A DNA stretch of 64,000 nucleotides, from the NCBI RefSeq assembly GCF_003351045.1, contig NZ_QQZY01000002.1:1-64000 (forward strand), read 5' to 3'. The position numbers were made by a program, and so were the translations under genes. Positions within the stretch are counted from its first letter, which is position 1, and the number at the start of each line of letters is the position of its first letter. Below, in pieces: positions 35,717-40,684 of the stretch. The DNA comes from Gaiella occulta (GTDB taxonomy: Bacteria > Actinomycetota > Thermoleophilia > Gaiellales > Gaiellaceae). The notes beneath the pieces were generated by a model. The model was not told the origin of the DNA. It searched no databases and saw nothing but the letters and a program-made list of their open reading frames with translations.

Positions 35717-36250
35717 CTAGGCGGCGTCTGTCGCGGCGGCCGGCAGCGTCTCGGGTGTCACGTAGCGCAGGTCGGGCAGCGCCCGCCAGCGCTCGTCGAG
35801 CCCGAGGCCGTAGCCGGCGAAGAGCTCGTCGGGGACGGTGAAGCCGACGTAGCGAAGGTCGATGTCGCCGACGAGCCGGCGGTACGGGCGGTCGAGCAGC
35901 GTCACGGCGGCGAGACTCGCCGGGTTGCGCGTGCGCAGCGTGCGCACGAGGAAGCCGAGCGTCAGCCCCGTGTCGACGACGTCCTCGACGACGATCACGT
36001 CGCGCCCCTCGATCGGCGTGTCGAGATCCTTCAGCAGCCGCACGCCGCCGCTGCGCCCAGCGCCGTAGCCGGCGAGCTCGACGACGTCGATGCCGTGGAG
36101 GATCGGCAGGGCGCGAGAGAGGTCGGCGAGGAAGACCGCGCTCGACTTCAGCGGCGCCACGAGCAGCGGCTCGCGCCCCGCGTAATCCGCCGTGATCTCG
36201 CGTCCGAGCTCGGCCACGCGCGCCGCGATCTCCTGCGCGGACAGGTACAC
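35717..36250 (-). CDS. hpt: Hypoxanthine phosphoribosyltransferase
   Basis: This 177-residue purine-salvage enzyme has the PRPP-binding motif VIVVEDVVDTGLTL, the flexible-loop region PLKSSAVFLADLSRAL, and C-terminal VGFTVPDELFAGYGLGLDE. All catalytic features for HPRT are present. The GTG at 36250 was chosen since the first conserved strand follows directly. Farther upstream lies only the end of the preceding gene, 23 bases away, so both are likely one transcript. Confidence 0.93.
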   Translation of the reverse strand: MYLSAQEIAARVAELGREITADYAGREPLLVAPLKSSAVFLADLSRALPILHGIDVVELAGYGAGRSGGVRLLKDLDTPIEGRDVIVVEDVVDTGLTLGFLVRTLRTRNPASLAAVTLLDRPYRRLVGDIDLRYVGFTVPDELFAGYGLGLDERWRALPDLRYVTPETLPAAATDAA

Positions 36251-36273
36251 GTCCCCGACCGCAGGCCGGGCCT

Positions 36274-36642
36274 CTATGAGGCGAGCTTCAGCTGATATCG
36301 CTGGGCGAGGCGCTCGAGGTCGCGCCGGTAGAAGAGCTTGACGTTGACGTGCGGGTAGAGCTGCTTCAACTCCCGCAGCTTGCGGTTCTTGCGCGTGACG
36401 AGCGACTGCTTCATCACGGTCACCTCGACGTAGAGCTCCTGGTCGGGAAGGAAGAAGTCCGGTGTGAACGCGCGCCTGACCCGCCCCTCCGCGTCCCGCT
36501 CGAGCACGAACGACGTCGGCTCGTAGTCCCACGGCACTCCGTACCAGTCGAGGATCTTCGCGCACTCGAGCTCGATCCGGTTGGCGAAGCGCGGCGCCTC
36601 GGAGCCGCAATATGCCTGGAACCGGTGGAATTCCGCCCGCAC
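36274..36642 (-). CDS. PD-(D/E)XK-like nuclease-fold protein upstream of hpt
   Basis: This 122-residue protein has RIELECAKILDWYGVPWDYEP, then FTPDFFLPDQELYVEVTVMK and a conserved basic end (RKNRKLRELKQLYP, VKLFYRRDLERLA). The order Glu ... PDF ... EVT resembles the PD-(D/E)XK core, with Thr where the Lys is expected. TAGCCT (minus strand, 36655-36650) lies 8 bases before GTG 36642. Its pairing with hpt might hint at nucleotide metabolism. The activity is unknown. Confidence 0.7.
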   Translation of the reverse strand: MRAEFHRFQAYCGSEAPRFANRIELECAKILDWYGVPWDYEPTSFVLERDAEGRVRRAFTPDFFLPDQELYVEVTVMKQSLVTRKNRKLRELKQLYPHVNVKLFYRRDLERLAQRYQLKLAS

Positions 36643-36724
36643 CGGGGCAAGGCTAGTGACCGCCCCGGACGCCACCGCCGGGCGGCGTCCCCGCGACCCC
36701 TTGGTTTGCAGGAGGATTCCGCCG

Positions 36725-36736: not shown

Positions 36737-37546
36737 ATGGCCGACGGCGCCGGGCCGGTCTTCCGCATCGCCCACCTCTCCGACCTGCACTGCGGCGGGC
36801 CGTACTTCGAGCCGACCCTGCTCGAGCGGGCGATCGCCGAGATCAACGAGCTGGAACCGGATATCGTGATCTGCTCGGGCGACCTGACGACGCTCGGCTT
36901 CAAGCACGAGTACCACCTCGCCCGGGAGTACGTGAACCGGATCGCGTGCGACGCGCTCGTCGTCGTGCCCGGCAACCACGACTCGCGCAACGTCGGCTAC
37001 GTCCACTTCGAGGAGCTGTTCGGAGAGCGGAACTCCGTGCTGCGCAAGGGCGGCGTCACCGTCGTTGCGGTCGACTCGACCGAGCCGGACCTCGACCACG
37101 GCCAGATCGGCCGCGGCCGCTACCCGTGGATCGAGCGCGAGTTCGCCGCCGGGCCGGCCGACCTGAAGATCTTCGTGCTCCACCACCATCTGCTGCCCGT
37201 GCCGGGCACCGGCCGCGAGCGCAACGTCGTCTACGACGCCGGCGACGCGATCGAGTGCCTGCAGCGCGCCGGCGTGCGGCTCGTCCTCTCGGGCCACAAG
37301 CACGTGCCGTACGCGTGGCGCCTCGAGAACCTGTTCGTCGTCAACACGGGCACGGTCTCGTCGCTGCGTCTGAGGGGGAACACGAGGCCCTGTTACAACG
37401 TGGTCGAGGTCTGCGGCAGCCATGTCGACATCTGGCGCCGCCATCCCTTCCACGGGCAGGAGCGGATCATCCAGTTCTCGACCACCACGCTCGAGTACGA
37501 GAAGTACACGGGCCGGATCGACGCCGAAGTGAGGTCGCGGCCGTGA
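36737..37546 (+). CDS. Calcineurin-like metallophosphoesterase (CpdA-like)
   Basis: This 269-residue phosphoesterase has all dinuclear metal motifs: LSDLHCG (Asp16, His18), CSGDLT (Asp49), PGNHDSR (79-85), VLHHHLLP and SGHKHVP. Such enzymes hydrolyse cyclic nucleotides or phosphodiesters. As first gene of the operon for cyclic 2,3-diphosphoglycerate it could open or degrade that cyclic compound, though this is inference only. TAGACT ends 7 bases upstream. Its stop overlaps the next GTG. Confidence 0.88.
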   Translation: MADGAGPVFRIAHLSDLHCGGPYFEPTLLERAIAEINELEPDIVICSGDLTTLGFKHEYHLAREYVNRIACDALVVVPGNHDSRNVGYVHFEELFGERNSVLRKGGVTVVAVDSTEPDLDHGQIGRGRYPWIEREFAAGPADLKIFVLHHHLLPVPGTGRERNVVYDAGDAIECLQRAGVRLVLSGHKHVPYAWRLENLFVVNTGTVSSLRLRGNTRPCYNVVEVCGSHVDIWRRHPFHGQERIIQFSTTTLEYEKYTGRIDAEVRSRP

Positions 37547-38820
37547 GGGCCGTGGCGCTGATCGACGGCGAGCACTACGCCGCGGTCGTTCGCGACGCCT
37601 TCCACGAGCTTCCCTACGAGATCGTCGCGGCGGTGCTCGTCGGCGGCTCGGAGAAGCTGCGCGGCGGGGAGGGCTACGGCGTCCCCGTCGCCGCGACGCT
37701 CGAGGAGGCCGTGCTCGCGCACGCGCCCGACGTCGTGCTCGACCTCTCGGACGAGCCGGTGCTCGGCCCGGTCGAGCGGTTCCGGCTCGTGGCGCGCGCC
37801 CTCGCGCTCGGCGTTCCCTACGAGGGTGCCGACTTCCGCTTCGAAGTGCCCTCCTTCGCGTCCGTCGCAACGCCGTCGCTCGCGGTGATCGGCACCGGCA
37901 AGCGCGTGGGCAAGACCGCGGTGACGGCGCACGTCGCCGCCACCCTGGCGGCCGGCCGGCGCCTCGTCGTCGTCGCGATGGGCCGGGGCGGGCCGGCCGA
38001 GCCCGAGCTGGTGGAGACGGCGCCCACGCTCGAGGCGCTGCTCGAGCGCTCGCGCGCCGGCCGCCACGCGGCCTCGGATCATCTCGAGACGGCGGCGCTC
38101 ACCGGCGTTCCCACCGTCGGGTGCCGGCGTTGCGGCGGCGGCCTCGCAGGAGCCGTCGGGCTGTCGAACGTCGCCGACGGCGTGCGCGTCGCGGAGGCGC
38201 TCGCCCCGGACCTGCTCGTGTTCGACGGCAGCGGCGCCGCGCTGCCTCCGGTGGCTGCCGGGCGCCGCATCCTCGTCGTGAGCGCCCAGCAGGAAGCTGC
38301 CGTCGCAACCGGCTACCTCAACGCCTATCGCGCGCTTCTCGCGGACCTCGTCGTGGTGACGATGGCCGAGGAGGAGGCCGACCACGCACGGCTCGCGGCA
38401 GCGCTCGGCGGCATCACGCGGCCCGGCGTCCCCGTCGTCCGCGCCGTGCTGCGCCCGCGCCCGACGACGAGCATCGTCGGGCGGACGATCGCCTATTTCG
38501 GGACGGCGCCGGCGACGCAGCACGAGCGCATTGCGCGGCATCTGAGCGATGGTCACGGCGCTGTCGTGGCGCACGTCTCCGGGAGCCTCTGCGACCGTGG
38601 CGCGCTGCGCCGGGAGCTCGCGCGCGTCGACGCGGACACCTTCGTCGTCGAGCTCAAGGCGGCGGCGGTCGACGTGGTCGTCGAGGAGGCGAGCCGGCGT
38701 GGGGTGGACGTCGTGCTGACGGGGAACGACGTTTTGCCGCTGCGCGGGGAGATCGACCTCGACGCCGAGCTGGAACGGCTGGCGGCCGAAGCCACGCTCA
38801 CAGCCGCGGTGCCCGCGTGA
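37543..38820 (+). CDS. cpgS: Cyclic 2,3-diphosphoglycerate synthetase
   Basis: This 425-residue enzyme matches the cDPG synthetase family of methanogens along its length. The start is ALIDGEHYAAVV, followed by VLDLSDEPVL, the P-loop GTGKRVGKT (117-125), AMGRGGPAEPE (145-155), GRHAASDH (173-180) and CRRCGGG (194-200). It uses ATP to close 2,3-diphosphoglycerate into the cyclic diphosphate. The GTG overlaps the preceding stop by four bases and the stop overlaps 2-phosphoglycerate kinase, so substrate supply and cyclisation are coupled. A bacterial example is unusual. Assignment is from remembered family motifs. Confidence 0.88.
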   Translation: MRAVALIDGEHYAAVVRDAFHELPYEIVAAVLVGGSEKLRGGEGYGVPVAATLEEAVLAHAPDVVLDLSDEPVLGPVERFRLVARALALGVPYEGADFRFEVPSFASVATPSLAVIGTGKRVGKTAVTAHVAATLAAGRRLVVVAMGRGGPAEPELVETAPTLEALLERSRAGRHAASDHLETAALTGVPTVGCRRCGGGLAGAVGLSNVADGVRVAEALAPDLLVFDGSGAALPPVAAGRRILVVSAQQEAAVATGYLNAYRALLADLVVVTMAEEEADHARLAAALGGITRPGVPVVRAVLRPRPTTSIVGRTIAYFGTAPATQHERIARHLSDGHGAVVAHVSGSLCDRGALRRELARVDADTFVVELKAAAVDVVVEEASRRGVDVVLTGNDVLPLRGEIDLDAELERLAAEATLTAAVPA

Positions 38821-39731
38821 CCGAGCGCCGCTACCTGGCGCCGCTGCCGCTCGGCGGCGACGAGGGGCCGCCGTGGTCGAAGGGGTTGATGGCGCGCGCG
38901 CTCGCCGCCACGGGTCTGACGCCGACGCGGGCGTACGAGCTTGCCCGCCGTGTCGATGCCGACATGGCGCAGCGCCGCGTCGCGGTGGTCGACCTCGATC
39001 GTCTCGGAGAGATCGCGGCGGAGCTGATCGGCGAGACCGAGGCCCGCAGGACGATCCGCCGCCTGCGCCGCCTGCAGGCGTTGCAGCAGCTCGAGCTGCC
39101 GGTGGTGCTGCTCGTGGGCGGTGCGACGGGCACCGGCAAGTCGACGCTCGCGACGGAGGCCGCGCACCGGCTCGGGATCACGCGGGTCACCTCGACGGAC
39201 TTCATCCGGCAGACGATGCGCGCGTTCTTCTCCCGGGAGTTCATGCCGTCGGTGCACTACTCGAGCTTCGAGGCCAAGCTCGCGCTCACGCGCGCCGACG
39301 AGGATCTCTCAGGCGACGCGGCGTTGCTCGGCTTCCTCGACCAGACGCGCAACGTGCTCGTCGGCGTCGAGGCGGCGATCGACCGTGTGCTCACCGAAGG
39401 GTGGTCGATGGTGCTCGAGGGCGTACACCTCGTGCCCGGGATGATCGCGGTCGACCGCGCGGACGCGCTCGTCGTGCAGTGCGTCGTCGCCATCAGCGAC
39501 GAGGATCTCCACCGCAGCCACTTCTGGGTGCGCGACGCCGCCAGCGACGGGCTGCGCCCGCTCGAGAAGTACATCGACGGCTTGCCCGAGATCCGTCTCA
39601 TCCAGGACGTGCTGCTCGAGCGCGCGCGCCGGTTCGACGTGCCCGTGATCGAGAACGACTCGTTCGACGAGACGATCGGCGAGGTGCTCGACCTCGTCCT
39701 CACGAGCGCCGAGCGGCTCGTGCGCGCATGA
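38817..39731 (+). CDS. pgk2: 2-phosphoglycerate kinase
   Basis: This 304-residue protein makes 2,3-diphosphoglycerate from 2-phosphoglycerate and ATP. It has an N-terminal ATP-cone-like region (SKGLMARALAATGLTPTRAY), Walker A GGATGTGKST (101-110), the family motif STDFIRQTMRAFFS (126-139) and LEGVHLVPGM (about 203-212). This arrangement is that of archaeal 2-PGK. The GTG overlaps the cDPG synthetase stop, and its own stop overlaps the GlpX ATG. Together the two enzymes complete cDPG synthesis. Confidence 0.88.
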   Translation: MTERRYLAPLPLGGDEGPPWSKGLMARALAATGLTPTRAYELARRVDADMAQRRVAVVDLDRLGEIAAELIGETEARRTIRRLRRLQALQQLELPVVLLVGGATGTGKSTLATEAAHRLGITRVTSTDFIRQTMRAFFSREFMPSVHYSSFEAKLALTRADEDLSGDAALLGFLDQTRNVLVGVEAAIDRVLTEGWSMVLEGVHLVPGMIAVDRADALVVQCVVAISDEDLHRSHFWVRDAASDGLRPLEKYIDGLPEIRLIQDVLLERARRFDVPVIENDSFDETIGEVLDLVLTSAERLVRA

Positions 39732-40684
39732 GCTGCCTGTGCACGAACTATGCGAAGGCGACGGAGTGGGCGGCGCTCGCGGGGGCACGCTGGCTGGGGC
39801 GCGCGGACGAGGAGGCCGCCGAGGAGTCCGCGGCGGCGGGGATGCGGGCGGCGCTCAACGAGCTGCCGATCGACGGGAGGGTCATCGTCGGCGCGCGCGC
39901 GGGCGACGCCCTCGAGCCGGGCTGTGAGGTCGGGGCCGGAGGAGAGCAGGTCGACCTCGCGCTCGATCCGCTCGAGGGCCGGGGCGTCGTCGCCCGCGGC
40001 GGCACCGGAGCCATGGCCATGCTGGCGGTCGCTCCGGCCGGGTCGCTGCGGCGCCTGCCCGACATGTACATGCGGACGATGGCGGTGGGGCCGCGCGCGA
40101 AGGACGCGATCGACCTGCTGGCGCCGGTGGCGGACAACGTCGACGCCATCGCCGCGAGCTTCGGCCGCACGGCCGCCGACGTGACCGCGCTCGTGCTCGA
40201 CCGGCCCCGCCACAGCGACCTCGTCGAGGAGATCCGTGCGGCCGGAGCGCGGATCAAGCTGATCCAGGACGGCACCGTGACCGCGTCGATCTCCGCCGCG
40301 ATCCGCGGCACGAACGACCATCTCGCGATCGGCATCGGCGGCTCGCGGCAGGCGCTCCTGACCGCCGCGGCCCTGCGCTGCCTCGGCGGCGGCATGCAGG
40401 CGCAGCTGTGGCCGACGACGCGGGCGCAGATCGACGAGGCTCACGCGGCGGGCATCGAAGACGTCGCCCAGGTGTTCGCGGAGGGCGACCTGGCGCCCGG
40501 CGACGTGATCGTCGTCGCGACCGGCGTGACGAACGGCGACCTGCTGCGCGGCGTGCGCTTCCTCGCCGACAGCGCGCGCACGCACTCCCTCATCATGTGC
40601 ATGCGCTGCAACTGGGTGCGCTTCAGCGACGGGATCCACTTCTTCGCGCGCGAACGGCGCGAGGAGGTGCGACTGCTGACGTGA
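39728..40684 (+). CDS. GlpX-like class II fructose-1,6-bisphosphatase, divergent active site
   Basis: This 318-residue protein aligns with GlpX: WAALAGARWLGR, MRAALNELPIDGRVIVG, DLALDPLEG (Asp80, Glu83) and ATGVTNGDLLRGVRF. Two conserved positions differ from E. coli. The GDKxxAD segment reads ADEEAAE, and the metal-binding GEGE segment reads GARA, removing the ligand equivalent to Glu57. The enzyme may have altered activity, perhaps on another bisphosphate made in this operon. It overlaps 2-PGK by four bases, as last gene of the operon. Confidence 0.82.
   Translation: MSCLCTNYAKATEWAALAGARWLGRADEEAAEESAAAGMRAALNELPIDGRVIVGARAGDALEPGCEVGAGGEQVDLALDPLEGRGVVARGGTGAMAMLAVAPAGSLRRLPDMYMRTMAVGPRAKDAIDLLAPVADNVDAIAASFGRTAADVTALVLDRPRHSDLVEEIRAAGARIKLIQDGTVTASISAAIRGTNDHLAIGIGGSRQALLTAAALRCLGGGMQAQLWPTTRAQIDEAHAAGIEDVAQVFAEGDLAPGDVIVVATGVTNGDLLRGVRFLADSARTHSLIMCMRCNWVRFSDGIHFFARERREEVRLLT

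What the first reader, a model, noticed from the sequence alone, without database searches (positions are those of the whole stretch)
36737..40684. Bacterial operon predicted to make cyclic 2,3-diphosphoglycerate
Seen: cDPG synthetase-like (37543) and 2-phosphoglycerate kinase-like (38817) genes with intact P-loops and family motifs, joined by 4-base overlaps to an upstream metallophosphoesterase and a downstream GlpX-like gene. Known: 2-PGK plus cDPG synthetase turn 2-phosphoglycerate into cyclic 2,3-diphosphoglycerate, a protein-stabilising solute and phosphate store in methanogenic archaea. Inferred: this bacterium makes cDPG or a related cyclic phosphate. The phosphoesterase would degrade it and the GlpX-like enzyme would tie it to gluconeogenesis. 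The fixed four-gene coupling suggests a dedicated module.
Basis: partly seen in the sequence, partly recalled or inferred. Interest (0 to 1): 0.85.

Follow-up and report, generated by a model that had tools for sequence, protein, structure and literature searches.

The report
Bacterial cyclic-2,3-diphosphoglycerate operon with candidate hydrolase
A bacterium of the class Thermoleophilia carries, in one operon, the two enzymes that archaeal methanogens use to make the protective phosphate compound cyclic 2,3-diphosphoglycerate, plus a phosphoesterase that is inherited with them so faithfully that it is a good candidate for the unidentified enzyme that breaks the compound down.

Summary
The four genes exist as described, with 4-base overlaps. 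The central protein is a full-length relative of Methanothermus fervidus cDPG synthetase: 42% identity, model Z 45.6 against the solved structure (best other fold 18.3), with all the 2,3-DPG and Mg contacts tested kept. The next gene is a 2-phosphoglycerate kinase homologue, below curated cut-offs. In 249 genomes of the class, the synthetase occurs in 116; the kinase and one specific metallophosphoesterase each occur in 112 of these and in none of the other 133. The phosphoesterase sits directly upstream in 71 of 75 named loci and accompanies the synthetase in 4 of 4 archaeal genomes, so it is a good candidate for the missing cDPG hydrolase gene. The GlpX reading fails: that protein has lost the FBPase nucleophile and several ligands, carries a four-cysteine signature, and is optional; the genome has a canonical GlpX elsewhere. 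The unit is therefore a three-gene module plus an optional GlpX pseudoenzyme. That bacteria make cDPG is well supported by sequence but untested; a 2023 paper describes cDPG as exclusive to hyperthermophilic methanogens.

The parts
36737..37546 (+). Binuclear metallophosphoesterase of class III (Rv0805/GpdQ fold); candidate cDPG or 2,3-DPG phosphohydrolase
   Evidence: PF00149 1.4e-19; model nearest Rv0805 Z 23.2 and GpdQ Z 23.1; co-occurs and is co-located with the synthetase; 49 invariant residues over 23 sequences
37543..38820 (+). Cyclic 2,3-diphosphoglycerate synthetase (GTG start, overlaps the previous gene by 4 bases)
   Evidence: PDB 8oru E 2.1e-79, 9sxb E 2.2e-76; model to 8oru Z 45.6 over 424 residues; active-site residues kept
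38817..39731 (+). 2-phosphoglycerate kinase homologue (GTG start, 4-base overlap)
   Evidence: NF008994 2.4e-78 and NF003259 3.9e-76, both below curated cut-off; mevalonate-3-phosphate 5-kinase model far weaker, 1e-24
39728..40684 (+). GlpX paralogue, predicted inactive as an FBPase, with a four-cysteine signature (C3, C5, C291, C294); optional member of the cluster
   Evidence: PF03320 1e-95; catalytic residues replaced and Cys4; canonical GlpX elsewhere in the genome; no close copy in many cDPGS+ genomes

Best explanation
The operon makes and breaks down cyclic 2,3-diphosphoglycerate. The kinase (38817) phosphorylates 2-phosphoglycerate to 2,3-diphosphoglycerate. The synthetase (37543) uses ATP and Mg to close the phosphoanhydride ring. 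The phosphoesterase (36737), a two-metal enzyme of the Rv0805/GpdQ class, most likely reopens the ring or removes phosphate, returning carbon and phosphate to central metabolism. In this class the three genes are gained and lost together, as a biosynthesis-plus-turnover unit. Shown here: homology, fold, kept active-site residues, co-occurrence and gene order. Inferred: the reactions, the phosphoesterase's substrate, and the role (solute, phosphate store or energy store). The GlpX-like fourth gene is a facultative, probably non-catalytic accessory.
For: Synthetase: PDB 8oru 2.1e-79 over residues 3-396; AlphaFold model (pLDDT 92) to 8oru Z 45.6, rmsd 2.3, 424 residues, best other fold 18.3. Residues that bind 2,3-DPG, Mg or ADP in M. 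fervidus (E45, K46, K145, R146, K149, T150, D208, T353, E404, K406; PMC10690619) are identical in the window and in all nine Thermoleophilia relatives aligned. Kinase: best NCBIfam models are both 2-phosphoglycerate kinase. Of 249 class genomes, 116 have the synthetase; kinase 112/116 versus 0/133; phosphoesterase 112/116 versus 0/133. Phosphoesterase directly upstream in 71 of 75 loci, from Thermoleophilia, Rubrobacter, Aquicultor and coriobacterial MAGs. Archaea: 4/4 synthetase-bearing genomes have the phosphoesterase versus 3/20 others tested. Two relatives lack exactly the three genes at the same locus, keeping flanking genes and GlpX. cDPG hydrolase activity is known in Methanobacterium thermoautotrophicum, and I found no gene assigned to it (PMC1224877).
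Against: No product or activity is known. The kinase is below the curated 2-PGK cut-offs (256 versus 343 bits; 264 versus 603). The adenine-loop residue E305 varies in distant families. Rubrobacter keeps phosphoesterase and synthetase, but the best kinase homologue in all six genomes searched has the P-loop lysine replaced by threonine and is unlinked. Bacillota MAGs have the synthetase without kinase or phosphoesterase orthologue. Three archaeal genomes have the phosphoesterase but no synthetase hit. Class III phosphoesterases are often promiscuous, so fold does not fix the substrate. Co-occurrence counts are not corrected for shared ancestry.
Confidence: 0.65

Rival explanations
1. The synthetase and kinase make cDPG, but the phosphoesterase acts on another molecule (for example a cyclic nucleotide or glycerophosphodiester) and is coupled through regulation only.
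For: Nearest solved structures are a cyclic-nucleotide phosphodiesterase (Rv0805) and a glycerophosphodiesterase (GpdQ). A paralogue with 44-53% identity exists, also in some genomes with no synthetase, so the family can serve other roles.
Against: The orthologue is never found without the synthetase in 133 class genomes, and accompanies it in archaea even when unlinked. It is more conserved than the synthetase itself (for example 88 versus 70% and 60 versus 47% in the same genomes).
Confidence: 0.2
2. The operon makes a related but different compound: the bacterial enzymes have moved to another bisphosphorylated or pyrophosphate-ring substrate.
For: Kinase below curated 2-PGK cut-offs; the kinase superfamily includes mevalonate-3-phosphate 5-kinase; only 42% identity of the synthetase to the archaeal enzyme.
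Against: The 2,3-DPG contacts tested are invariant from M. fervidus to distant Thermoleophilia. Archaeal genomes carry the same synthetase-kinase pair in the same order. 2-PGK models beat the mevalonate-3-phosphate 5-kinase model by about 170 bits.
Confidence: 0.1
3. One reading: a fixed four-gene module in which GlpX is an active phosphatase linking cDPG to gluconeogenesis.
For: GlpX is next to the core in several Thermoleophilia families and in Rubrobacter; some operon copies keep the catalytic Thr (L049, L078, L089).
Against: Window copy has lost T84, E51, D27, D183 and E208; T84A is inactive in M. tuberculosis GlpX (PMC5892879). A canonical GlpX is at C2:309507. No close copy in many cDPGS+ genomes, present in two cDPGS- genomes.
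Confidence: 0.04

Closest known systems
cDPG pathway of Methanothermus fervidus (2-PGK and cDPGS; PDB 8ork, 8oru)
   Same: Homologous synthetase over full length with the same substrate residues and fold; homologous kinase; the archaeal loci L128 and L165 also have synthetase followed by kinase
   Different: Bacterial, outside the hyperthermophilic methanogens; genes overlap in an operon with a dedicated phosphoesterase and an optional GlpX paralogue; about 42% identity of the synthetase
Class III metallophosphoesterases Rv0805 (cyclic-nucleotide phosphodiesterase) and GpdQ (glycerophosphodiesterase)
   Same: Same fold (Z about 23) and metal-binding motifs
   Different: 18-25% identity; own set of invariant residues (for example in the stretches RNVGY, PGTGRER and GRGRY); strict association with cDPG synthetase in this class
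Class II fructose-1,6-bisphosphatase (GlpX)
   Same: Family by PF03320; keeps Y114, R159 and R161 of the phosphate-binding pocket
   Different: Catalytic Thr and several ligands gone; CxC near the N-terminus and CxxC near the C-terminus, not seen in the canonical copies compared
Membrane-bound cDPG hydrolase of Methanobacterium thermoautotrophicum (activity only)
   Same: Proposed same reaction
   Different: No gene assignment found to compare; no membrane anchor is evident in the window phosphoesterase (read by eye, not tested)

Membership tests
Cyclic 2,3-diphosphoglycerate synthetase | Full-length similarity including the unique N-terminal domain | tested here: met
   phmmer 2.1e-79, residues 3-396; model to 8oru Z 45.6 over 424 residues
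Cyclic 2,3-diphosphoglycerate synthetase | P-loop and 2,3-DPG/Mg residues E45, K46, K145, R146, K149, T150, D208, K406 | tested here: met
   All identical in the window and in nine relatives
Cyclic 2,3-diphosphoglycerate synthetase | Forms cDPG from 2,3-DPG and ATP | not testable with these tools
   Needs an enzyme assay
2-phosphoglycerate kinase | Best match to 2-PGK models with intact P-loop | tested here: met
   NF008994 2.4e-78, NF003259 3.9e-76; GGATGTGKST
2-phosphoglycerate kinase | Score above the NCBIfam curated cut-off | tested here: not met
   256 versus 343 bits and 264 versus 603 bits; the NF003259 cut-off is passed by only one of five control genomes with a match, so it is homologous but not a strict member
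cDPG hydrolase | Hydrolyses cDPG to 2,3-DPG | not testable with these tools
   Only co-occurrence and gene order support it
Class II fructose-1,6-bisphosphatase (active enzyme) | Catalytic Thr84 and residues D27, E51, D183, E208 (M. tuberculosis numbering) | tested here: not met
   Window has R84, E27, A51, T183, Q208 at these positions
Class II fructose-1,6-bisphosphatase (homology) | PF03320 above gathering score | tested here: met
   320.7 bits versus 27
Class III metallophosphoesterase | Fold and metal motifs D-x-H, GD, GNHD, GHxH | tested here: met
   Motifs invariant in 23 sequences; Rv0805 Z 23.2

The most novel reading that the evidence does not exclude
cDPG metabolism is a widespread bacterial trait of Actinomycetota, and the co-inherited class III phosphoesterase is the cDPG hydrolase whose gene has not been assigned, shared by bacteria and some archaea. 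In Thermoleophilia a dead GlpX paralogue with a four-cysteine (metal or Fe-S) site serves as a ligand-sensing partner rather than an enzyme.
Probability: 0.3. Interest if true: 0.88.

Novelty: new variant of a known kind. Interest (0 to 1): 0.73.

Why it matters
The 2023 structural paper states that cDPG is found exclusively in hyperthermophilic methanogens (PMC10690619). If this operon works as its sequence says, a supposed hallmark solute of hot archaea is made by a large group of bacteria, so its role is probably broader than heat protection (phosphate store, energy store or osmolyte). It also gives a testable gene for the cDPG hydrolase, known as an activity since the early 1990s, and new cDPG-synthetase sequences for producing this protectant.

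Tried and rejected
1) In-frame TGA codons in synthetase genes of distant relatives looked like possible selenocysteine; in those read they are the ordinary stop at the C-terminus. 2) GlpX as a gluconeogenic link: rejected on residues, paralogues and distribution. 3) Fixed four-gene module: rejected. 4) Extra conserved pathway genes between the core genes: in L041 the insertions look like glycosyltransferase ORFs (by eye) and the genes are adjacent in nearly all other loci. 5) Plasmid carriage: no match in the plasmid collection. 6) Sigma-70 promoter and terminator scan: nothing found. 7) No Pfam or NCBIfam model hits the synthetase, so pipelines based on those would leave it unnamed. 8) No sequence-similar solved structure for the kinase. 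10) Tree direction: archaeal sequences fall inside the actinobacterial spread, but the root is arbitrary and several deep forks are weak; the source organism of PDB 9sxb is not told by the tool, and I only assumed it archaeal in that tree's labels. 11) Paper searches pairing diphosphoglycerate with Rubrobacter or Thermoleophilia found nothing relevant. 12) Residue P335 of the paper does not land on a proline in my numbering of the archaeal fragment, so it was left out of the residue test.

Full report
Observation. The four + strand genes are at the stated places, with 4-base overlaps between each pair: phosphoesterase 36737-37546, synthetase 37543-38820, kinase 38817-39731, GlpX-like 39728-40684. 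The genome is a 3.03 Mb assembly in 34 contigs with one copy of the synthetase.

Synthetase. No Pfam or NCBIfam model hits it, but phmmer against the PDB gives Methanothermus fervidus cDPG synthetase at 2e-79 and a second deposited synthetase, 9sxb, at 2e-76. I mapped the residues that De Rose et al. (PMC10690619) report for 2,3-DPG, Mg and ADP binding. E45, K46, K145, R146, K149, T150, D208, T353, E404 and K406 are all identical in the window and in nine divergent relatives; the adenine-loop E305 varies. A model of the window protein (pLDDT 92) aligns to the ligand-bound archaeal structure with Z 45.6 over 424 of 425 residues; the best chain of another family is 18.3. The N-terminal domain, which had no known structural relative when first described (PMC10690619), is included in that match.

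Kinase. The best families are two 2-phosphoglycerate kinase models (2e-78 and 4e-76), with the related mevalonate-3-phosphate 5-kinase at 1e-24. The scores are below the curated cut-offs, so strict family assignment is not met. Among the 14 control genomes only one of the five with a match passes the cut-off of NF003259, so that threshold is narrow.

Phosphoesterase. It belongs to the calcineurin-like superfamily. Its model is nearest to Rv0805 and GpdQ (Z about 23), which are two-metal phosphodiesterases. Across 23 sequences 49 positions are invariant, including the metal motifs and several arginines, which would suit an anionic substrate (the last point is inference).

Co-inheritance. In 249 genomes of the class, 116 have the synthetase (one borderline hit at 9e-4 set aside). 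The kinase is in 112 of these and the phosphoesterase orthologue (best E below 1e-80) in 112; neither is in any of the 133 without the synthetase. Several of the missing cases are contig ends or fragments. Fisher p is 5e-67 for each, but relatedness is not corrected for. Of the 80 kept, 75 have room upstream and 71 of those have the phosphoesterase there. The loci include Rubrobacter (with the named strain R. taiwanensis), Candidatus Aquicultor, coriobacterial MAGs, Bacillota MAGs and the archaeon Candidatus Methanolliviera. In a sample of 197 genomes of the last one's phylum, 4 have the synthetase. All 4 have the phosphoesterase, against 3 of 20 genomes tested without the synthetase (p 0.003). 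In the archaeal regions read, the phosphoesterase is not beside the synthetase, while the kinase follows the synthetase (L128, L165, L166).

Natural deletions. Genomes G165 and G174 of the same family lack the synthetase, kinase and phosphoesterase orthologue, yet keep the GlpX-like gene beside the usual flanking genes (phosphoribosyltransferase and endonuclease-like gene in one, M23-type peptidase in the other). The reverse, the core without a close GlpX-like gene, is seen in G132, G003, G027 and others. So the unit of inheritance is three genes, and GlpX is optional.

GlpX-like protein. Of the ten class II FBPase catalytic residues listed for M. tuberculosis (PMC5892879), the window keeps D79, an acidic residue at position 82, Y114, R159 and R161. 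It has E for D27, A for E51, R for the proposed nucleophile T84, T for D183 and Q for E208. A T84A mutant is inactive in M. tuberculosis, and the equivalent Thr89 is proposed as the attacking nucleophile in F. tularensis (PMC10289334). The same genome has a canonical GlpX at C2:309507 and another at C1:278342. Operon copies vary: a few keep Thr, most do not, and the Rubrobacter ones have Leu. All Thermoleophilia-type operon copies aligned share C3, C5, C291 and C294, absent from the two other copies of this genome, from M. tuberculosis and from Rubrobacter. My reading is a phosphate-ligand-binding pseudoenzyme with a metal or Fe-S site; this is inference.

Mechanism. Proposed: 2-PG + ATP to 2,3-DPG (kinase); 2,3-DPG + ATP to cDPG + ADP + Pi (synthetase, chemistry as in PMC10690619); cDPG back to 2,3-DPG or phosphoglycerate (phosphoesterase). 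cDPG hydrolysis is known as an activity in Methanobacterium thermoautotrophicum (PMC1224877); the library search found no gene for it. The role (osmolyte, protectant, phosphate or ATP store) is open. Carriers range over many lineages not known as hyperthermophiles, so heat protection alone is unlikely to be the role (inference).

Known versus new. The pathway and both biosynthetic enzymes are known in archaea. The literature also notes 2-PGK in mesophilic class I methanogens (PMC2686161), cDPG synthetase in ancestors of ammonia-oxidising archaea (PMC7554672) and 2-PGK in Thermus and Deinococcus (PMC1274311). I found no paper on a bacterial cDPG operon. New here: its breadth in Actinomycetota, the tied phosphoesterase, and the GlpX pseudoenzyme. 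The library is limited to open papers, so priority is not proven.

Limits. There are no activity data; the tree is unrooted with weak deep forks; the methanogen groups where cDPG was measured could not be searched for the phosphoesterase.

Noticed in passing
L138-L143 and L145 (Rubrobacter 2-PGK homologues): The best kinase homologue in six Rubrobacter genomes has the Walker A lysine replaced by threonine (GGATGVGTST) and lies away from the synthetase; R. taiwanensis has a second copy with an intact P-loop (L146). How Rubrobacter gets 2,3-DPG is unclear.
   Followed up: partly
L105:7041-13219 (Bacillota MAG): Synthetase without kinase or phosphoesterase orthologue in the genome, placed after a GntR/UTRA regulator and before an ABC importer (binding protein, permease, ATPase); may be an uptake and catabolism setting.
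   Followed up: partly
window 39728-40684, residues C3, C5, C291, C294: Four-cysteine signature in the Thermoleophilia operon GlpX copies aligned, absent from canonical GlpX; possible Zn or Fe-S site.
   Followed up: partly
L155:1501-2187 (Candidatus Methanolliviera): Archaeal orthologue of the phosphoesterase, 51% identical, on another contig than the synthetase.
   Followed up: partly
whole genomes of the class, second hits (44-53% identity): A second phosphoesterase clade exists, including in genomes without the synthetase; function unknown.
   Followed up: no
window 35717-36660, minus strand: Divergent phosphoribosyltransferase (PF00156) and an endonuclease-like ORF are conserved neighbours of the operon in the family, even where the core is missing.
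   Followed up: partly
tree: Archaeal synthetases branch inside the actinobacterial spread, so the direction of transfer between domains is open.
   Followed up: partly
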